Origin: Desulfurivibrio dismutans
Lineage (GTDB): Bacteria > Desulfobacterota > Desulfobulbia > Desulfobulbales > Desulfurivibrionaceae
DNA length: 64,000 nucleotides
Direction of reading: 5' to 3'
Assembly: GCF_029210385.1 (NCBI RefSeq)
Contig: NZ_JARGDQ010000002.1
Span: 299,385-363,384, forward strand
A program made the translations under genes and the position numbers. The notes beneath the pieces are model-generated. The model made no database searches. It saw nothing but the letters and a program-made list of their open reading frames with translations, and had not been told where the DNA came from. Shown in pieces: positions 166-63,631 of this stretch (the first letter of the stretch is position 1; each line of letters starts with the position of its first letter).

Positions 166-1566
166 ATGGCGCAACCGGCAAAGGAACCATTGCTGATCGT
201 GGAGGACGATGCGGTTACCCGGCGGTTGTTCGAAACAGTGGCTGCGGGTGAGGGCTACCAGGTTCACGCTTGTGAGGGCGCGGAGAACGGCTGGGAGGTC
301 TTCCAGCAACACAACCCCCGGATTGTGGTCCTGGACTGGCTGCTGCGCGGCCTGGACGGCCTGGCTTTGGCCCGCCGGATCAGGCAGCACCCCGACGGCC
401 CTTATGTCACCATCCTGATGGTCACCACCCAGGAGAGGCCGGAGGAGATGGAGGAGGCCCTCAAGGCCGGGGTAACCTATTACCTGACCAAACCGGTAAA
501 ACGAGATTTTTTTCAGGCCTGGCTGGCGGCGGCCCGCAAGAACAGCGAAGATATGCGCCTGCTTCAGCAGCACCAGGAGGCCCGGGAGAAACACCGCCGA
601 GAACTGGAGTCGCTCAACGCCCAATTGGAGAACGCCATCACCCGGGCCAACGAAATGGCCGCCGAGGCCTCCCGCTCCTATATCGAGGTCAACCAGATCT
701 TCAAGACCGTGGCCGGCGGCATCCTGCTCGTCGATACCCAGTACCGGATTCTGCGTTTTAACGAAGCCTTTTTGCGTATGGCCGGGGTTTCTTCGATCAA
801 AGCCAAGGCCGCCAAATGTTACGAAGTCTTCCCCTCCTCCATGTGCAACACTCCGGGTTGCCCGATCCGGAGAATCAAAGCCGGGGAAGAGGCGGTGGAG
901 AACGATATCGAACGCCCCGCTCCCGATGGAGGCACGGCCCATTATCATGTGCTGGCCACCCCTTTCCGTGGCCCGGCTGGCGATCTGGTGGGTATTGTTG
1001 AGCATATCTCCGATGTCACCAGCCGGGTGCAGGCGGAAAAGGCCCTGCAGGAAAGCGAGCAGCGCTATAAGGAGCTGAGTATCCTCGATGAACTCACTGG
1101 GCTGTACAATAAGCGTTATTTCAATAAACACCTGACCCCGGAGGTGGAGCGGGCCCGGCGCTATGGTAACCCCTTAAGCCTGCTGGTGGTGGATATCGAT
1201 AACTTCAAGCACTTCAACGACACTTATGGTCATCCGCCCGGTGACCGGGTGCTGGCGGCCATGGGTAAGCTGCTGCGGGAGACGGTGCGCTTGAATGATC
1301 TGGCCTGCCGGATCGGCGGTGAGGAGTTTGCCGTCATTCTGCCGGAAACCAGCGGTGAAAACGCCTTGAAGCTGGCTGAGCGGTTGCGGCGGAAATTTGC
1401 CGCCCTGGAATTTCAACCCCAGGAAGGGGTGACGGTGCAGAAAACCATGAGTGTCGGGGTAGCGGAGCTTGAAACCGATGAAAGCACCGAAGAGCTGCTG
1501 GCTCGGGCCGACGGCAATCTCTACGCGGCCAAGGAGGCGGGCCGCAACCGCAGTATCCTCCGTTAA
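166..1566 (+). CDS. Response regulator with PAS and GGDEF domains (diguanylate cyclase)
   Basis: This 466-residue protein has an N-terminal receiver domain (about 8-125; acidic pocket EDD at 13-15, phospho-acceptor Asp57 in VVLDW, and LTKP lysine), a short coiled coil, a PAS domain (about 175-290) with a cysteine-containing MCNTPGCPI segment, and a C-terminal GGDEF domain. The active-site signature is GGEEF, and RLND five residues upstream is an RxxD inhibitory I-site. It is therefore predicted to be an active, feedback-inhibited c-di-GMP synthase controlled by phosphorylation. The ATG immediately follows the ddl stop codon. Its own stop codon lies inside the left arm of a 109-bp inverted repeat. 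The cognate histidine kinase cannot be assigned from sequence. Confidence 0.93.
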   Translation: MAQPAKEPLLIVEDDAVTRRLFETVAAGEGYQVHACEGAENGWEVFQQHNPRIVVLDWLLRGLDGLALARRIRQHPDGPYVTILMVTTQERPEEMEEALKAGVTYYLTKPVKRDFFQAWLAAARKNSEDMRLLQQHQEAREKHRRELESLNAQLENAITRANEMAAEASRSYIEVNQIFKTVAGGILLVDTQYRILRFNEAFLRMAGVSSIKAKAAKCYEVFPSSMCNTPGCPIRRIKAGEEAVENDIERPAPDGGTAHYHVLATPFRGPAGDLVGIVEHISDVTSRVQAEKALQESEQRYKELSILDELTGLYNKRYFNKHLTPEVERARRYGNPLSLLVVDIDNFKHFNDTYGHPPGDRVLAAMGKLLRETVRLNDLACRIGGEEFAVILPETSGENALKLAERLRRKFAALEFQPQEGVTVQKTMSVGVAELETDESTEELLARADGNLYAAKEAGRNRSILR

Positions 1567-1670
1567 AAGCGCGTCAGTGCCGCACCTTACGGCGATCGGC
1601 CCGACTTGCGTACTGATGTACGCGGCGCCGGGCCGCTTGCCGCAAGGTGCGGCACTGACGCGCTTTTAAC
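1562..1670. repeat. Dispersed long palindrome, copy A, at a stop codon
   Basis: This 109-bp near-perfect inverted repeat has left arm GTTAAAAGCGCGTCAGTGCC and complementary right arm ending CTGACGCGCTTTTAAC. Its centre at 1608-1623 is GCGTAC-TGAT-GTACGC. The TAA of the diguanylate cyclase (1564-1566) is part of the left arm. The A-run/T-run edges resemble a bidirectional intrinsic terminator, but the arms are far longer than a usual terminator. The core recurs elsewhere in the window (see findings). Confidence 0.9.
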
Positions 1671-5966: not shown

Positions 5967-5977
5967 GGCTTGGTCCT

Positions 5978-6140
5978 CCTTAACAGTCCGTTGAAAAAGC
6001 CATCCCTGGCTTTTTTAACTAACGGTTGGCCAAAGATGGATTTGGTCAACCTTACGAATTAATTGCCACTTTCAGTGCGAATGAATTCGGCGGCCCATCC
6101 ATGGGCCGCTAACAGCCCGTTTTTCAACGGGCTGTTAAGG
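5978..6140. mobile_element. MITE-like element with 21-bp terminal inverted repeats
   Basis: The segment is bounded by inverted repeats at 5978-5998 (CCTTAACAGTCCGTTGAAAA plus A) and 6120-6140 (its complement with one mismatch). The 163-bp interior has no ORF of note and includes smaller palindromes (GGCGGCCCATCCATGGGCCG). The right end also forms its own hairpin with AACAGCCCG at 6111-6119. It sits directly upstream of the hinT ribosome-binding site. No clear target duplication was recognised. Confidence 0.65.
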
Positions 6141-6154
6141 GGGCATCCCGTGAA

Positions 6155-16252: not shown

Positions 16253-17425
16253 GTGAAGCCGCCCATGGAACAAAATATCGGGCCCGTTGCCGGCCCGGCC
16301 GGGCTGTATGTGCATATCCCGTTCTGCCTTGGCAAGTGCTCCTATTGCGCCTTTGTCTCCTGGCCCTGCCGGCGGCCCCCCGCCGGCTATCCGGCGGCGC
16401 TGCTGAGCCAGGCCCGGCAGTTGGCGGCCCTGCCCTGGAGCCGGCAGCGGTGCTTTACCACCATCTTTATTGGCGGCGGCACCCCCACCATGTACCCGGC
16501 CGCAGTGCTCAACGAGTTGCTGGCCGAACTGCGGCAACTCTTTGCCATCAGCCCGGCGGCGGAAATCAGCCTCGAGGCCAACCCCGACACCCTGCGCCCG
16601 GAACTGCTGGCCGAGCTGCGACGAGGTGGCTTCAACCGAATCAGCCTCGGGGTGCAGAGCTTTACTGACGAGTTACTGCAAAAAATCGGCCGCCGCCATG
16701 ATGCCGTCGGTGCCCGCCAGGCGGTGGCCTGGGCCCGGCAAGCCGGCTTTGCCAACCTCAATCTGGATCTGATCTACGGCCTGCCGGGGCAAAGCCGGCG
16801 TCAGTGGGCCGCCGACCTGGCTGTTGCCCTGGAACTGGCCCCGGAACACCTGGCCATCTACCAGTTGACCCCGGAAGAGGAGACCCCCTTGGGCCGGGCC
16901 GTGGCCGCCGGCGAGCTTGTACTGCCGGATCAGGATCTCTGCGCCGAGTTTGAGCAGGATGCCCGCCGGTCCCTGCTGACGGCTGGTTACGAGCATTACG
17001 AGGTGGCCAATTATTGCCGTCCGGGTTACGCCTGCCGTCACAACCTCAATTACTGGCACAACGGCTCCTACCTGGGTTTGGGGGCGGCGGCAGTCTCTTG
17101 TCTCGCCGGGCTGCGACTGATGAATGTGGCCTCGCCGGGCCGGTACCGGCGCCTGCTGGCCGCCGGCCGGGCGCCCTATGCCGAGGCCGAGGCTTTAGGG
17201 CTAGCGGCCAGCTTTCGGGAAACGGTGATCATGGGCCTGCGTCTGCGTCGGGGGCTGCGCCTGGCCGAACTTGAACAACGCTTTGCTTTGACGCCGCGGC
17301 ACTATTATGGAACTATCCTCGATGAACTGATAGCCCAGGGTCTGCTGGTGATGGACCACGAAAGAATAGCCCTGAGCGAACGGGGCTTTGCCCTGGCCAA
17401 CCAGGTTCTCCATCGCCTGGTGTAA
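16253..17425 (+). CDS. hemW: HemW-like radical SAM protein (putative heme chaperone)
   Basis: The 390-residue protein resembles coproporphyrinogen III dehydrogenase HemN but has only the CxxxCxxC cluster motif (CLGKCSYCAF), without the fourth Cys of HemN, which marks it as HemW. Also seen are FIGGGTPTMYP, SLEANPDTLRPE, GVQSFTDELLQKIGRRHD, LNLDLIYGLPGQ, and YEVANYCRPGYACRHNLNYW. HemW is thought to bind heme and a 4Fe-4S cluster and deliver heme to enzymes. Start is uncertain: GTG 16253 or ATG 16265, neither with a clear Shine-Dalgarno. Its TAA stop is formed by the first bases of repeat copy B. Confidence 0.88.
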   Translation: MKPPMEQNIGPVAGPAGLYVHIPFCLGKCSYCAFVSWPCRRPPAGYPAALLSQARQLAALPWSRQRCFTTIFIGGGTPTMYPAAVLNELLAELRQLFAISPAAEISLEANPDTLRPELLAELRRGGFNRISLGVQSFTDELLQKIGRRHDAVGARQAVAWARQAGFANLNLDLIYGLPGQSRRQWAADLAVALELAPEHLAIYQLTPEEETPLGRAVAAGELVLPDQDLCAEFEQDARRSLLTAGYEHYEVANYCRPGYACRHNLNYWHNGSYLGLGAAAVSCLAGLRLMNVASPGRYRRLLAAGRAPYAEAEALGLAASFRETVIMGLRLRRGLRLAELEQRFALTPRHYYGTILDELIAQGLLVMDHERIALSERGFALANQVLHRLV

Positions 17426-17555
17426 CTGTCCAGCTCATTCTGGCACGTAATTGAACAGCCGTGCCCCAGGTTGCGGTAAGCCAAGTCGGCGTAGCGTACA
17501 TCAGGTACTCAAGCCGACCTGATCGCCGCAAGATGGGGTGCTGCTGGACAGTTAC
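17422..17555 (-). repeat. Dispersed long palindrome, copy B
   Basis: This 134-bp element runs from GTAACTGTCCAG to CTGGACAGTTAC. Its reverse complement aligns over the full length, with the same size, to copy F (29492-29625), and closely to copy I. It contains TTGCGGCGATCAGGTCGGCT on the minus strand. The hemW TAA (17423-17425) is inside its terminal repeat. It lies between hemW and radA. Confidence 0.9.
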
Positions 17556-17594
17556 CGCCTGGTTTAGATTAACACTCAGCCGTGTCGCAACAAT

Positions 17595-25881: not shown

Positions 25882-25935
25882 AATCCTTGAATAACCTACA
25901 CAAACCAAAAATTAACAAAAGCGCCCGCAAAAGGT

Positions 25936-26041
25936 AAAACTTGCCGCAGTGCCGCAGATTGCGGCAAGCGGGACGGCGCCGCGTACCCCAGGTACGCAAG
26001 TCGTCCCGATCGCCGCAAGCTGCGGTGCTGCGGCAAGTTTT
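25936..26041 (-). repeat. Dispersed long palindrome, copy D, at the hisD stop codon
   Basis: This 106-bp inverted repeat is bounded by AAAACTTGCCGCAG and CTGCGGCAAGTTTT. Its reverse complement has the same core as copy A (CTTGCGGCGATCGG, CGACTTGCGTAC, GTACGCGGCGCCG). Where copy A has GGCCCG/CGGGCC, this copy has GGGACG/CGTCCC, so both arms changed together. The last base of the hisD TGA (26041) is the first base of the element. Confidence 0.9.
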
Positions 26042-27342
26042 CAGGTGCGGAGCGTGGCGGAGCGGGCGTGCCCCGTCAGTCCTTCCAGCCGAGCCAGGCG
26101 GTCGATGGCCTTCTGGTCGGCCAGCAGGGCCTGCTTGCTGTAGCTGATCAGGCTGGATTTCTTGACAAAGGTCTCCACCCCCAGGGCCGAGGAGAACCGG
26201 GCCGTGCCCATGGTGGGCAGCACGTGGTTGGGGCCGGCCAGGTAGTCGCCGACCGACTCCGGGGTGTATTTGCCCAGGAAAATGGCCCCGGCATGGCGTA
26301 CCTTGGGCAGCCAGGCAAAGGGGTCGGCGATCATCAGTTCCAGGTGCTCGGGGGCCAGCCGGTTGGCCAGTTCCATGGCCTCGTCGAGATCGGCCGCCAC
26401 CAGCAGGGCACCCCGCTCGGCCAGGGAGCGGGCGGCGATTTCCCGGCGTTCCAGTTGCGGCAGCTGTTCGGCCACGGCGGCGGCAATTTGGCCCGCCATC
26501 GCCTGGTCGGTGCAGATGCACAGGGCCAGGGCCTGGGGGTCGTGTTCGGCCTGGGCCAGCAGGTCGGCGGCCACGTAAGCGGGTTCGGCGGTGTGGTCGG
26601 CCACCACCAGCACCTCGCTGGGGCCGGCGATCATGTCGATGCGCACCCGGCCGGAAACCTGGCGCTTGGCCTCGGTGACATACTGGTTGCCCGGGCCCAC
26701 AATCACATCCACCGGGGCGATGCTCTCGGTGCCGTAGGCCAGGGCGGCGATGGCCCAGGCGCTGCCCGCCTTGTAAATCTCGGTGATGCCGATTTCCCGG
26801 GCGGCGGCCAGCAGGGCGGGGTTGACCTTGCCTTCGGCATTCGGTGGGGTCAGCATCACCCGGCGCTTGACCCCGGCAATCCCGGCGGGAATGCCGTTCA
26901 TCAGCACCGAGGAGACCAACGGCGTGCTGCCGCCCTGGCCGCCGGGCACATAGAGGCCGGCGCTATCCACCGGGATCACCAGGCGGCCGGTAATCACCCC
27001 GTCTTCCCGGGTTTCGATCCAGGACTGCTCCCGTTCCCGTTCGTGAAACTGGCGGATGCGTTTTTCCGCCCGCCGCAGATGCCCCAGCAGTTCCCGGTCT
27101 ACCTGGCGGCAGGCCTCATCAATCTCCGCCTCGCTGACCCGCAGTTGGCCAAGTTCGAAAGCGGGCGAGTCGAAGCGGCGGGTGTATTCCACTAGGGCGG
27201 CATCGCCCTGGTCCCGGATTTGTTGGATAATTTCGTTAACCTGGCCGCGGCATTTATCATCGGCCAGCTGAAAGCGGTCGTAAAGGGCGGCCAGGCGGGC
27301 CTGCCCGGCCTTGGAAGCGGTGCTTACGGGGGTTAAGGCCAT
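26041..27342 (-). CDS. hisD: Histidinol dehydrogenase
   Basis: The 433-residue enzyme catalyses the last two NAD-dependent oxidations of L-histidine synthesis. Typical segments are IPVDSAGLYVPGGQGGSTPLVSSVLMN, IYKAGSAWAIAALAYGT, VDVIVGPGNQYVTEAKRQVSGRVRIDMIAGPSEV (quoted here only as landmarks at about residues 150-250), the zinc-site region LAQAEHDPQ and NHVLPTMGTARFSS. Length is normal. GAGGA precedes the ATG. It follows nadE by 102 bp, so the two may be co-transcribed; no other his genes are in the window. Confidence 0.97.
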   Translation of the reverse strand: MALTPVSTASKAGQARLAALYDRFQLADDKCRGQVNEIIQQIRDQGDAALVEYTRRFDSPAFELGQLRVSEAEIDEACRQVDRELLGHLRRAEKRIRQFHEREREQSWIETREDGVITGRLVIPVDSAGLYVPGGQGGSTPLVSSVLMNGIPAGIAGVKRRVMLTPPNAEGKVNPALLAAAREIGITEIYKAGSAWAIAALAYGTESIAPVDVIVGPGNQYVTEAKRQVSGRVRIDMIAGPSEVLVVADHTAEPAYVAADLLAQAEHDPQALALCICTDQAMAGQIAAAVAEQLPQLERREIAARSLAERGALLVAADLDEAMELANRLAPEHLELMIADPFAWLPKVRHAGAIFLGKYTPESVGDYLAGPNHVLPTMGTARFSSALGVETFVKKSSLISYSKQALLADQKAIDRLARLEGLTGHARSATLRT

Positions 27343-29468: not shown

Positions 29469-29491
29469 CCTTATCAAAATTGTCATTTTTC

Positions 29492-29625
29492 GTAACTGTC
29501 CAACAGCACCCCATTTTGCGGCGATCAGGTCGGCTTTAGTGCCTGATGTACGCCACGTCGACTTGGCTTACCGTAACCCGGGGCATTGCTGAACAGTTAC
29601 GTGCCAGAATGATCTGGATAGTTAC
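29492..29625 (+). repeat. Dispersed long palindrome, copy F
   Basis: This 134-bp element runs from GTAACTGTCCAACAGCACCC to GAATGATCTGGATAGTTAC. It is the same length as, and collinear with, the reverse complement of copy B. Unlike most copies it lies in a divergent region, between nadE (leftward) and the radical-SAM gene (rightward), not at a stop codon. Confidence 0.9.
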
Positions 29626-29633
29626 CATTTTTC

Positions 29634-30779: not shown

Positions 30780-31022
30780 GTAAATGAACAGCCGCACCCC
30801 ACCTTGTCGGCGGCTATCGCCGACTGGCCAAGCGCTGGTACTCTTTGCTGCCAAATACCGTCGCGAAAGCAAGTGGTGCTGGCAAGCTTTATCCCGCGCG
30901 GGCGATCAGCCAAGCCTACGTATACAGGTACGCGGCGCTTGGCTGCAAGACCTCATCTGGGGCACTGCTGAACGTTTACAGCCCGTTAAATCAACACCTT
31001 GTTGGCCCTGGTGAACAGTTAC
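30780..31022 (+). repeat. Expanded copy (G) of the dispersed palindrome
   Basis: The ends GTAAATGAACAGCCGCACCC (30780) and GGGGCACTGCTGAACGTTTA (30959-30978, then C) are inverted. A second GAACAGTTAC at 31013-31022 mirrors the double right end of copies B, F and I. Internal arms GGCCAAGCGC and GTACGCGGCGCTTGGC pair as well, around about 80 bp of extra sequence. It fills most of the 298-bp gap between the radical-SAM gene and hemE. Confidence 0.7.
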
Positions 31023-33844: not shown

Positions 33845-33916
33845 GCGCCTACGGGACAAACCCGGTGGTTGGTTCCCGCTGAGAAGTTGATTGGCATATA
33901 TGCGCCAGCGAAAAAG

Positions 33917-33963
33917 CTGAAAGGGCAGCAGTGCCGCAAAATGCGGCACTGCTGCCCCTTCAG
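33917..33963. terminator. Bidirectional hairpin terminator E, sharing the repeat boundary motif
   Basis: CTGAAAGGGCAGCAGTGCCG (33917-33936, then CA) and its complement ending CTTCAG enclose an AAA loop; one mismatch in 22 bp. The rodA TGA (33962-33960) lies in the right arm. The apex GTGCCGCA/TGCGGCAC is the same sequence that opens the core of copy A. This may be the empty or core-deleted form of the element. Confidence 0.75.
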
Positions 33964-35072
33964 CCGCTGGTCATAAACCTTCGCATTCTGATATTCATTA
34001 AAATGCCGATGGCAGCCAAAGTGGTGAGCAGCGATGAGCCGCCATAGCTGAACAGCGGCAGCGGCATCCCCACCACCGGCAGCAGTCCCAGTACCATCCC
34101 CAAATTGACAAAGGCCTGCCAGAAAAGCAGTGAGACGATGCCGAAGGCCAGCAATACCCCGAACTTGTCCCGGGCGGTGAGGGCGATGTTCAGCCCCCAG
34201 AGAATGATGAAAAAGTAGCAGGCCAGAAAAAAGAGCGAACCGACAAAGCCCCACTCTTCGGCCCAGACCGAAAAGGCGAAATCGGTATGGCGTTCAGGCA
34301 GAAAGTCCAACTGGGCCTGGGTGCCCTGCATGTAGCCTTTGCCGAAAGTGGCGCCGCTGCCCACGGCGATTTTCGACTGGGCGATATGGTAGCCGCTGCC
34401 CAGGGGGTCGCTTTCCGGGTTGATAAAAGTAAGAATGCGCTGCCGCTGGTAGGGTTTAAGATAAAAGAGCCAGACCAGGGGAACGAAGGAGAGAGCAACG
34501 CCGGCCAGGGTAACCAGGGTGGACCACTTGAGCTTCACAAAAAGGGTCATGGAAACAAAAACGATGATCATCATCATGGCGGTGCCCAGGTCGGGCTGCT
34601 TGACGATCAGGGCAAAGGGCAGGATGGTCAGCCCCATGGGAATAATAAGCTCCTTGAAGGCGAAGCCGGCGCCGGTATCTTTGCGGTAGTAGTAACTGGC
34701 CAGGGTGATCACCAGCATTAGCTTGGCCGGCTCCGAGGGCTGCAGGCGAAAAAAACCGAGGTTGATCCAGCGCTGGGTGCCGGCCACTTCGGTGCCGAAA
34801 AAGAGGGCCGCCAGCAGCAAAAAAATGGTCATGATATAAAAGGGATAGCTCCATTTGGTGAGTACCTTGTAATCCACCATCAGGATCGTCAAAATGACGC
34901 AGAAACCCAGCAGATAATAGTAAATCTGTTTGACAAAAACCGAGGTGCCGAACCCTTTGTGCAGGGAAGCTGCACTGTACAGGTTCAGCAGGCCCAGCAG
35001 GGCGATGATGATTACTGCGACCAGCATTACCCAGTCGAAGCTTTGCAGCAGACGTCGGTCAAAACGAAACAT
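33960..35072 (-). CDS. rodA: Rod-shape peptidoglycan polymerase RodA (MrdB)
   Basis: The 370-residue SEDS-family protein has ten predicted membrane helices. Landmarks are WINLGFFRLQPSEPAKLML, IVKQPDLGTAM, SKIAVGSGATFGKGYMQGTQ, FLPERHTDFAFSVWAEEWGF and MPLPLFSYGGSS. It polymerises glycan strands in the elongasome together with PBP2. It is last in the leftward mreB-mreC-mreD-mrdA-rodA operon, 6 bp after mrdA. Its stop codon forms part of hairpin E. Confidence 0.96.
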   Translation of the reverse strand: MFRFDRRLLQSFDWVMLVAVIIIALLGLLNLYSAASLHKGFGTSVFVKQIYYYLLGFCVILTILMVDYKVLTKWSYPFYIMTIFLLLAALFFGTEVAGTQRWINLGFFRLQPSEPAKLMLVITLASYYYRKDTGAGFAFKELIIPMGLTILPFALIVKQPDLGTAMMMIIVFVSMTLFVKLKWSTLVTLAGVALSFVPLVWLFYLKPYQRQRILTFINPESDPLGSGYHIAQSKIAVGSGATFGKGYMQGTQAQLDFLPERHTDFAFSVWAEEWGFVGSLFFLACYFFIILWGLNIALTARDKFGVLLAFGIVSLLFWQAFVNLGMVLGLLPVVGMPLPLFSYGGSSLLTTLAAIGILMNIRMRRFMTSG

Positions 35073-45940: not shown

Positions 45941-46461
45941 CGCCATTACTTACCGTAGAGGGATTGGCCGGGGTGGTTTTTTTCGGCTTTATCCTGCTGA
46001 TCATCTTCGGCGCCCTGGTCGCCACCAACGCCGTCAATCTGATCCGGGCGGTGTGCGGTCTGGCCCTGTGCCTGGTGGGAGTGGCCGGAATTTATTATTT
46101 CCTGCAAAGCCCCTTTCTGGCCCTGATGCAGATCCTGATATACGCCGGGGCGGTGTGTGTGGCCATCGTCTTTGCAGTGATGCTGGCCGAGCCGCAAGGG
46201 GTGCAGAGATTGGAGCGGGCGCATCCTCTGGCCGGGCCGGGAGCTTTTGCCGTCGCCGCCCTGATGACCTGGGGGTTGGCTGCTCTGGCACTGAGGACTT
46301 CCTGGCCGGAAGCGGCGGCGCGGGTTAACGCCGGCGCCCTGGAGGATGTGGGACGGGCGATGATGACCACCTTTGTGGTCAGTTTTGAACTGATTTCCCT
46401 GATTTTGTTGGTGGCCATCTTGGGTTCACTGGTGTTGGCCCGCCGCGGTCGCCGCCGGTAA
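45937..46461 (+). CDS. nuoJ: Complex I subunit J
   Basis: The 174-residue protein has five membrane helices, with ALVATNAVNLIRAVCGLALCLVG and LMQILIYAGAVCVAIVFAVML (the pi-bulge helix 3 region). It overlaps nuoI by ATGA. Its TAA (46459-46461) is inside the left arm of repeat copy H, after which 218 bp separate it from nuoK. Confidence 0.94.
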   Translation: MTPLLTVEGLAGVVFFGFILLIIFGALVATNAVNLIRAVCGLALCLVGVAGIYYFLQSPFLALMQILIYAGAVCVAIVFAVMLAEPQGVQRLERAHPLAGPGAFAVAALMTWGLAALALRTSWPEAAARVNAGALEDVGRAMMTTFVVSFELISLILLVAILGSLVLARRGRRR

Positions 46462-46567
46462 AACGTTCGCCAGCACCGCATCTTGCGGCGATCGGCCCGG
46501 CTTGCGTGGTGATGTACGCGGCACCGTCCCGCTTGTCGCAACCTGCGGCACTGGCGAACGTTTTACC
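46457..46567 (+). repeat. Dispersed long palindrome, copy H, inside the nuo operon
   Basis: This 111-bp inverted repeat has outer arms GGTAAAACGTTCGCCAG and CTGGCGAACGTTTTACC. The core reads CATCTTGCGGCGATCGGCCC then GATGTACGCGGC, as in copies A and D. The nuoJ stop is in the left arm. About 110 bp of further spacer with no ORF follow before nuoK. Confidence 0.9.
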
Positions 46568-62816: not shown

Positions 62817-63296
62817 GTGGGAAAACGTGGTCTGTGGCCGATTCGCTACTACGGCTGGTACTCGAACCGGGGCCGGGGGGAACGGGTGAACCGCCTGGCC
62901 GATGCCGCCGCTACCACCACCGGCCAGTCACCGCCTCCGGCTGCGGTGGAAGTGCTGGAAGTGTCCGACTACCACCCCCGCAAGATTCCGTCCCCGACCT
63001 GGCGGGAGTGCATCAAGAAGGTCTGGGAGATCGATCCGCTCACCTGCCCTAAATGCGGCGGGGAGATGAAGATCATCAGCTTCATCTCCGAGGCGGCGAT
63101 CATCCGGCGGATTCTGGAGCACCTGGGATTATGGACGACCAAGAAGCCAAAGCCAGCCGCGCCCCCGCCAGCCCTTGACCGTGAAAGGCGATATGAACCG
63201 TTCGACGATGGCTGGTCTCAGTATGAAGAGCATGATGAGCCGTCTTTTTTGGGGGTGGAATTTTTCGTCGACATGCCAGTCGGCAGCCGTTATTGA
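62817..63296 (+). pseudogene. IS91-type transposase remnant (C-terminal fragment)
   Basis: The open frame encodes a C-terminal piece of a transposase: IRYYGWYSNRGRGER, SDYHPRKIPSPTWRECIKKV, and a zinc-ribbon-like DPLTCPKCGGEMKIISFI, then IIRRILEHLGLW. These segments match the end of IS91-like Y2 transposases. The catalytic N-terminal half (two Tyr, HUH) is missing, so the gene is truncated and non-functional. It lies next to the toxin-antitoxin pair and repeat copy I, marking this as an accessory patch. Confidence 0.75.
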
Positions 63297-63499: not shown

Positions 63500-63631
63500 G
63501 TAACTGTCCAGCAGCACCCCATCTTGCGACGATCAGGTCGGCTTGAGTACCATATGTACACTACGCCGACCTGCTTACCGCAATATGGGGCACTGCTGGA
63601 CAGTTACCACAGGCATGAGCTGGATAGTTAC
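63500..63631 (+). repeat. Dispersed long palindrome, copy I
   Basis: This 132-bp element runs from GTAACTGTCCAGCAGCACCC to ATGAGCTGGATAGTTAC and is closely similar to copies B and F. An inner CTGCTGGACAGTTAC ends at 63607, so the right end is doubled as in F. It lies in the 525-bp gene-free region 63297-63821, which otherwise holds short CTCACC repeats (near 63385-63420) and an AT-rich stretch. Confidence 0.9.

What the first reader, a model, noticed from the sequence alone, without database searches (positions are those of the whole stretch)
1562..1670. Family of dispersed long palindromes with copy-specific but complementary stems
Copies at 1562-1670, 17422-17555, 25936-26041, 29492-29625, 46457-46567 and 63500-63631 share a core: TTGCGGCGATC, a C/G stem, a central GTAC...GTAC palindrome, then CCGCAA. 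Stem blocks differ between copies yet remain paired: GGCCCG/CGGGCC in copy A against GGGACG/CGTCCC in copy D, and GTGCCGCA/TGCGGCAC in A against CCCCA/TGGGG in B, F and I. The outer arms (GCGCGTCAG, CTTGCCGCAG, CGTTCGCCAG) are different in each but always matched by their complement. Many leftover mismatches are transitions that would be G-U pairs in one RNA strand. This is what selection for structure, or repeated repair into a palindrome, would leave. I know of no named family with this core.
Basis: seen in the sequence. Interest (0 to 1): 0.85.

Follow-up and report, generated by a model that had tools for sequence, protein, structure and literature searches.

The report
Jumping hairpins settled at gene ends
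Desulfurivibrio and related bacteria carry a transposon-like DNA element of roughly 130-150 letters that contains a long hairpin, and in three Desulfurivibrio genomes more than a hundred copies of that hairpin without the rest of the element sit at the ends of genes, often supplying the stop codon, with arms that differ in matched pairs, which likely means that the cells now use them as RNA end signals.

Summary
The six copies belong to a family with 146 core matches in the window's genome (control 0). Two forms exist. (1) A MITE of about 130-150 bp: a ~107-nt hairpin starting GTAA, a short tail and a TTAC-ending inverted repeat, with 8-bp target duplications (47 of 133 perfect; 0.05 expected). 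Window copies 17422 and 29492 have perfect ones; D. alkaliphilus lacks both insertions. The ends fit IS66 elements; in one relative an IS66 transposase fragment sits beside an end sharing 14 nt with the MITE's. (2) Solo hairpins without detectable 3' repeat or duplication (173 in three Desulfurivibrio genomes): 122 of 166 placed start at a stop codon, 59 supplying its TAA; codirectional ones share the gene's strand 89:14. They recur at orthologous loci, where paired bases change together (88 double changes; 1-9 in slid controls), while internal loops mostly stay unpaired. A third of the main type has TTTT at its base, against 1 of 27 duplication-flanked copies. Best reading: a MITE hairpin domesticated as mRNA 3'-end signal (terminator or exonuclease shield); function untested. 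Against it: wobble pairs favour the opposite strand.

The parts
1562..1670 (+). Solo hairpin (canonical strand +) between convergent genes; the TAA at 1564-1566 is the stop codon of the upstream diguanylate-cyclase gene
   Evidence: orthologous copy in G001 (L089); outside 8-mers TATCCTCC/TATCCACC match 7 of 8 (by eye)
17422..17555 (-). Full MITE, canonical strand -; its GTAA supplies the TAA stop (17423-17425) of hemW
   Evidence: D. alkaliphilus hemW ends GTC TAA without the element
17414..17421 (.). 8-bp target duplication CGCCTGGT, left copy (right copy 17556-17563)
25934..26042 (-). Solo hairpin, canonical strand -; directly behind the TGA stop (26043-26041) of hisD; arms differ in three species, each complementary
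29492..29625 (+). Full MITE in a divergent spacer; absent at the orthologous site of G002 and of G001
29484..29491 (.). 8-bp target duplication CATTTTTC, left copy (right copy 29626-29633)
30882..31022 (+). Decayed or chimeric copy with MITE-type tail, no target duplication (4 of 8); the G002 spacer lacks it
33916..33964 (.). Short stem sharing the inner arm (CAGTGCCGCA) without the core, at the stop codon of a convergent gene; its sequence is found at the orthologous place in G002; kinship to the family unproven
   Evidence: 35.8 bits
46458..46566 (+). Solo hairpin; the TAA at 46459-46461 is the stop codon of the upstream gene; copies in G001 and G002 with compensatory arm changes
63500..63631 (+). 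MITE copy with tail and 3' inverted repeat; eroded target duplication (ATACTATC/AGGCTATC)

Best explanation
The palindromes are copies of a transposon-like element (a MITE with GTAA...TTAC ends and 8-bp target duplications, probably moved by an IS66-type transposase) whose ~107-nt hairpin persists in Desulfurivibrio without the rest of the element at the 3' ends of genes, where it likely acts as an mRNA 3'-end signal (terminator or exonuclease shield) and is likely kept folded by selection. Shown by calls: ends, tail, target duplications and empty sites of the MITE form; the solo form, its stop-codon position, strand bias and recurrence at orthologous loci; paired changes in the arms. Inferred: that solos descend from MITEs by loss of the tail; that the hairpin is read as RNA; that it ends transcription or blocks 3' exonucleases. 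Proposed course: a MITE lands at a gene end, where its GTAA can itself serve as stop; copies that put the hairpin right behind the stop are kept; tail and 3' repeat decay; the arms drift in complementary steps, gain stability and, in a third of the main type, a TTTT tract.
For: MITE: of 133 copies with a 3' inverted repeat 47 have 8/8 and 29 have 7/8 direct repeats (expected 0.05 and 0.42); reversed-sequence control for the stricter 3' repeat 1 of 279; empty sites for 17422 (G002) and 29492 (G002, G001); same plan in other genomes of the order with exact duplications in 10 of 14 hits, read by eye. IS66: ends GTAAGCG and 8-bp repeats (PMC11946415, passages); IS66 elements of G000/G002 end GTAAGCGCTCA; in G215 an IS66 transposase C-terminus (PF03050) is followed after its stop codon by AGCTGGATAGTTAC, the same 14 nt that end G215's own MITE copies. 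Solos: 122 of 166 start within -6..+8 of a stop, 59 at -4; codirectional 89:14 on the gene strand (p 1.6e-14) against 17:16 for duplication-flanked copies; stop at 5' end 122/166 against 14/57 (p 1.5e-10). Orthologous copy held: G000 solos 24/80 against 1/25, G002 24/70 against 1/21. 38 orthologous solo pairs: 88 Watson-Crick to Watson-Crick double changes against 1-9 slid. Solos of the main type: mean -74.8 against -65.4 kcal/mol, TTTT 45/135 against 1/27 (p 0.0009).
Against: Wobble cells favour the strand opposite to the upstream gene (A.C 329 against G.T 84; one-sided changes in orthologous solos 52 against 16), and that strand folds better in 155 of 173 solos; mRNA-level selection alone does not predict this, though duplication-flanked copies already show it (55 of 59). 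Most solos (126 of 173) lack a run of 4 T. Only 12 of 173 solos keep a recognisable tail (controls 1 and 2). Duplication-flanked copies also lie near stops more often than chance (18/57), so position alone does not prove function. One-sided mismatches occur in the orthologous pairs too (49), and the pairs from three species are not independent. IS66 transposase is absent from several genomes with the MITE. No RNA data.
Confidence: 0.63

Rival explanations
1. Selfish MITE without host function: copies survive best just behind stop codons because they do least harm there, and the complementarity of the arms is kept by hairpin-templated repair or gene conversion, not by selection.
For: Active MITE with exact duplications and identical hairpins in 8 of 8 fetched G003 copies; duplication-flanked copies already enriched at stops (18/57); a few copies have repaired loops (L037, L019); core exchanged at the 46458 locus in G001.
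Against: Internal loops stay unpaired in most copies (Watson-Crick in 14-30 of 217-219 per column); solos recur at orthologous loci while their tails are gone; strand bias and TTTT tracts are found in solos and not in duplication-flanked copies.
Confidence: 0.17
2. REP-like control of translation: the hairpin right behind the stop slows terminating ribosomes or sets mRNA decay, lowering expression of the upstream gene, rather than ending transcription.
For: Position within 8 nt of the stop in most solos; E. coli REPs less than 16 nt from a stop are reported to lower translation (PMC12306157, passages, citing Liang et al. 2015).
Against: Many solos lie between convergent genes (53 of 166) and a third of the main type carries T-tracts at the base, as expected of terminators; not excluded.
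Confidence: 0.12
3. Integron attC-like recombination sites: stop codon at the 5' end, orientation with the gene, better folding of the reverse strand.
For: G000, G001 and G002 encode integron integrases (446-450 bits, cut-off 265); strand asymmetry.
Against: The G000 array region behind the integrase has no hairpin of this family and contains sites of ordinary attC look (TAACGCC...GGCAGCGTTA, by eye); RYYYAAC/GTTRRRY boxes do not frame the solos; solos sit at genes such as hisD at orthologous loci; genomes without such an integrase (G013, G054) carry the family.
Confidence: 0.02
4. REP element moved as single-stranded DNA by a Y1 (RAYT-type) transposase.
For: GTAA tag at the foot, conserved unpaired bases, one strand folding better; Y1 genes in G000 (3), G001 (3), G002 (2), G013 (3).
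Against: No copy in the nine Y1 neighbourhoods examined (L129-L137); inverted terminal repeats and 8-bp duplications.
Confidence: 0.03

Closest known systems
IS66-family insertion sequences and MITEs mobilised in trans
   Same: GTAA(GCG) inverted ends and 8-bp target duplications; in G215 an IS66 transposase fragment is followed by the same 14-nt end as the MITE
   Different: No coding capacity; the left end is a 107-nt hairpin whose 3' arm repeats the end; no complete autonomous partner seen
Bacterial folding MITEs next to genes (NEMIS/Correia, ERIC, RUP, Bcr1, as named in PMC3733652)
   Same: Small, repeated, intergenic, fold as RNA, inverted ends
   Different: Here bare hairpins without transposon ends are fixed at stop codons and show compensatory divergence between sister species
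GTAG-type REP elements with RAYT transposases
   Same: Tagged palindromes whose termini provide stop codons to flanking genes (PMC3733652, passages)
   Different: REPs are 20-40 bp with a GTAG or CGTC tag; these are about 107 nt, have 8-bp duplications and no Y1 gene nearby
Intrinsic (two-way) transcription terminators
   Same: GC-rich stem; A-tract at the 5' base (42 of 135) and T-tract at the 3' base (45 of 135) of main-type solos; many between convergent genes
   Different: Stem much longer, conserved internal loops, most copies without a run of 4 T

Membership tests
MITE | Short non-coding element with terminal inverted repeats | tested here: met
   GTAA...TTAC ends; 93 of 279 held copies have the 3' repeat with at most 2 errors, control 1 of 279
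MITE | Target-site duplications of fixed length | tested here: met
   47 of 133 at 8/8 and 29 at 7/8; expected 0.05 and 0.42
MITE | Empty orthologous sites | tested here: met
   17422 (G002) and 29492 (G002, G001)
MITE (solo hairpins) | Inverted ends and target duplications | tested here: not met
   146 hairpin-only copies: 0 at 8/8, 2 at 7/8 (0.35 expected); filed as likely relics, not as MITEs
IS66-type MITE | Ends beginning GTAAGCG and 8-bp direct repeats | tested here: met
   Exact GTAAGCG in the C class; GTAA with other following bases in A, B and D; 8-bp repeats
IS66-type MITE | An IS66 transposase gene bounded by the same ends | tested here: inconclusive
   G215: transposase C-terminus followed by the B-type end, 14 nt identical; the rest is cut off by the contig end. 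G000/G002 IS66 share only GTAAGCG.TCA. No IS66 transposase in G001, G003, G013 and others
REP/RAYT | 20-40 bp palindrome with GTAG or CGTC tag, Y1 transposase gene nearby | tested here: not met
   About 107 nt, GTAA tag, 0 of 9 Y1 neighbourhoods
attC site | RYYYAAC / GTTRRRY boxes and cassette array | tested here: not met
Intrinsic terminator | Stem followed by a U-tract | tested here: inconclusive
   Run of 4 or more T in 47 of 173 solos, 3 of 59 duplication-flanked copies
Intrinsic terminator | Ends transcripts in vivo | not testable with these tools
   No RNA data
Rfam families | Match at the curated threshold | tested here: not met
   Only five tRNAs in the window

The most novel reading that the evidence does not exclude
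A transposon has built a genome-wide mRNA 3'-end system: in Desulfurivibrio one MITE hairpin has been fixed at the stop codons of many tens of genes per genome, supplies the stop codon itself in a third of them, has lost its transposon ends, and is now maintained as host terminator or 3' shield by compensatory evolution of private arms around a shared core that can be exchanged between loci.
Probability: 0.45. Interest if true: 0.78.

Novelty: new variant of a known kind. Interest (0 to 1): 0.63.

Why it matters
How mobile hairpins become host parts is usually argued from single cases. Here one genome holds duplication-flanked, orientation-neutral, mostly species-specific insertions beside conserved, stop-linked, strand-biased hairpins, with three sister species to compare. 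That makes domestication and compensatory evolution of a structure countable and testable. It also explains many gene ends in this genus, gives annotation a named repeat, and accounts for assembly breaks in at least one draft genome (G003).

Tried and rejected
RAYT mobilisation: Y1 genes are common, but no copy lies beside the nine examined. attC: integrase present, array sites of another kind; my strict attC expressions found nothing, so that statement rests on reading by eye. Solo hairpin as a self-transposing unit: no duplications at its ends. Strand polarity along the G002 chromosome: a first impression was an effect of the capped list. Class-wide scan: 137 of 257 genomes match at E<=1e-6, at most 15 scored per genome; weak matches may be any long palindrome, so I rely only on copies that I read. 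G013: of 27 distinct places (29 rows, two printed twice) 12 have duplications of 7/8 or better and most others show the tail; solos as in Desulfurivibrio are few there.

Limits: the first sorting (up to 3 errors in the 3' repeat) called some solos MITEs; (up to 2 errors) replaced it. 'Solo' therefore means no 3' repeat detected. The p-values for stop proximity used summed ends (127:39, 20:37); one search repeats them with the right counts (123:43, 18:39). About 60 of 279 held copies are outside the 219 full-length set. 7 of 173 solos and 2 of 59 duplication-flanked copies lacked a gene on both sides or lay inside a called gene. Gene positions come from my own codon-usage caller. Held copies are a part of all copies (listing caps), so ortholog counts are lower bounds.

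Papers: searches; no listing showed this family, but the library holds open papers only. Passages (not whole texts) seen of PMC12306157, PMC3189936, PMC5016858, PMC12142623, PMC11946415, PMC3733652, PMC4853749; in PMC5016858 'palindrom' and 'transposase' occur 0 times.

Full report
WHAT IS THERE. All six palindromes exist as described. A search of the window's genome with one copy scored 40 of 157 candidates and found matches in all of the listed places; the core pattern with up to three mismatches occurs 146 times, its reversed control never. The window's genome (2,838,417 bases, 33 contigs) fits Desulfurivibrio dismutans AMeS2 as described in PMC12142623 (33 contigs, 2.8 Mb, N50 330 kb; passages). 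G002 has the length of D. alkaliphilus AHT2, 3,097,763 bp (PMC5016858, passages). G001 has contigs of the same length and match position as MAG CSSed10_361. Core counts: G001 145, G002 113, G013 (another genus of the family) 128, G054 12, the other relatives of 58 searched 0-4.

STRUCTURE. An alignment of 40 copies gives 42 pairs in one long imperfect stem. 94.0% of cells pair; 216 cells differ on both sides from the commonest pair, against 51.5 +/- 5.5 in shuffles and at most 37 when the partner is slid. Over 219 full-length copies many of the fifteen outer pairs show three or four pair types. Six internal-loop columns, by contrast, stay unpaired: Watson-Crick in 14 to 30 of 217-219 copies.

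A MOBILE FORM. Many copies continue 3' of the hairpin into a tail of some 25-45 nt that ends in an inverted repeat of the 5' end (GTAA......TTAC). Of 133 such copies 47 have a perfect 8-bp direct repeat just outside and 29 have 7 of 8; shuffled pairings give 0.05 and 0.42. In the window, 17422-17555 lies between two CGCCTGGT and 29492-29625 between two CATTTTTC. D. alkaliphilus lacks both: hemW there ends GTC TAA, while in the window the insertion gives GTG TAA with the TAA taken from the element; the 29492 site has a single CATTTTTC in G002 and CATTTTCC in G001. Twelve loci from eight other genomes of the order and from G013 show the same plan with diverged stems; by eye 10 of their 14 hits have exact 8-bp duplications and one has 7 of 8. 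In G003 the 15 matches scored all have the same score and the eight fetched hairpins are identical and lie at contig ends, which suggests a recent burst. Ends and duplication length are those reported for IS66 (GTAAGCG, 8 bp; PMC11946415, passages). The IS66 elements of G000 and G002 end GTAAGCGCTCA. In G215 a contig starts inside an IS66 transposase (PF03050, E 1.6e-12); 25 nt behind its stop codon comes AGCTGGATAGTTAC, the 14 nt that also end G215's MITE copies. A complete autonomous partner was not seen.

A SETTLED FORM. In G000, G001 and G002, 173 of 257 classified copies have no detectable 3' repeat; I call them solo hairpins. Hairpin-only copies show no target duplication, and 12 of 173 keep a tail relic (controls 1 and 2). 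Of 166 with genes on both sides, 122 have a stop codon within -6..+8 of the hairpin's 5' end, 59 at exactly -4, where the TAA of GTAA is the stop. Codirectional solos lie on the gene's strand 89:14. Duplication-flanked copies differ: stop at the 5' end 14 of 57, orientation 17:16, divergent spacers 14 of 57 against 10 of 166. Solos recur at orthologous places: 24 of 80 G000 solos have an orthologous copy among the held G002 copies, against 1 of 25 duplication-flanked ones; 24 of 70 against 1 of 21 the other way; 13 of 23 G001 solos have one in G000. In G013 most places read still carry the tail.

HOW THE ARMS CHANGE. In 38 orthologous solo pairs 88 pair positions differ as one Watson-Crick pair against another (47 in the outer fifteen, 41 inside), against 1-9 when partners are slid; 49 have a one-sided change to a mismatch, 52 to A.C and 16 to G.T (some loci are counted in more than one species pair). 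At hisD the three species read CTTGCC/GGCAAG, CGTGGA/TCCACG and CGTTCA/TGAACG in the same block; at the 46458 locus an A-T pair of the window is G-C in the other two species, and a G-C pair is T-A in G002. Within G000 the solos have 148 double-changed cells in the outer fifteen pairs against 32.0 +/- 4.3 shuffled; G002 102 against 18.1. 99 distinct 15-nt arms occur among 144 solos, against 21 among 49 duplication-flanked copies. Solos of the main (non-B) type are more stable (mean -74.8, n 135, against -65.4 kcal/mol, n 27) and have TTTT at the 3' base in 45 of 135 against 1 of 27 (p 0.0009). Core and arms can part company: at the 46458 locus G001 has a C-type core inside orthologous arms.

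HOW IT LIKELY WORKS. The simplest account is that MITE insertions at gene ends were kept where they placed the hairpin directly behind the stop codon, that the rest of the element then decayed, and that the hairpin now serves as a 3'-end signal of the mRNA, either as terminator (two-way between convergent genes) or as a block to 3' exonucleases. Position, strand bias, recurrence, paired change and acquired T-tracts agree with this. 126 of 173 solos lack a run of four T, so shielding of Rho-made or processed ends may matter as much as intrinsic termination; that is untested. A REP-like effect on translation is possible, since E. coli REPs less than 16 nt from a stop are reported to lower translation (PMC12306157, passages citing Liang et al. 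2015).

AGAINST THIS READING. If the mRNA strand alone were under selection, G.U should outnumber A.C on it. The reverse holds (84 against 329; 54 against 132 without the common states), and the reverse strand folds better in 155 of 173 solos. The mobile form already shows it (55 of 59), so it may be inherited, but I cannot explain it. Descent of solos from MITEs is inferred from shared sequence, a few relics and a few mixed orthologous pairs. Block-like differences such as hisD may reflect conversion or re-insertion rather than single steps.

WHAT IS KNOWN. Repeats that provide stop codons are known: termini of GTAG-type REPs do so (PMC3733652, passages). MITEs that fold next to genes are known (same source). 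In the searches listed under Tried and rejected I found no description of this family, nor of a MITE hairpin fixed without its ends at stop codons with compensatory divergence. I call it a new variant of a known kind.

Noticed in passing
window 62817-63296: ORF weakly resembling the C-terminus of IS91/ISCR transposases (28.8 and 20.7 bits, far below curated cut-offs), about 200 bp before the MITE copy at 63500.
   Followed up: no
window 5975-6143: Second repeat family: TTAACAGTCCGTTGAAAAA and its inverse about 120 bp apart; similar strings follow the hairpins in L030 and L049.
   Followed up: no
G000:C23:323910-324860, G002:C1:2830311-2831261, G001:C259:1244-2194: Integron integrase genes; in G000 a region of 6 kb behind it with atypical genes and attC-like sites; in G002 group II intron parts nearby.
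   Followed up: partly
L156:1521-1630 against window 46458-46566: Orthologous solo hairpin with a C-type core inside conserved arms: core and arms evolve separately.
   Followed up: partly
L255:1228-1575; L291: Tandem copies: three hairpins about 120 bp apart in G000:C31 and a tandem pair in G054, so local amplification occurs.
   Followed up: no
L088 (PWWA01000024.1): A contig filed under a Woesearchaeota MAG carries a B-type MITE with a 7/8 duplication; probably a misbinned Desulfurivibrio-like contig, not archaeal.
   Followed up: no
G003 contig ends, e.g. L274-L281: Identical hairpin copies sit at contig ends, so the repeat breaks this draft assembly.
   Followed up: partly
whole family: Non-Watson-Crick cells are mostly C.A on the strand shared with the upstream gene, so the opposite strand folds better; no explanation found.
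   Followed up: partly
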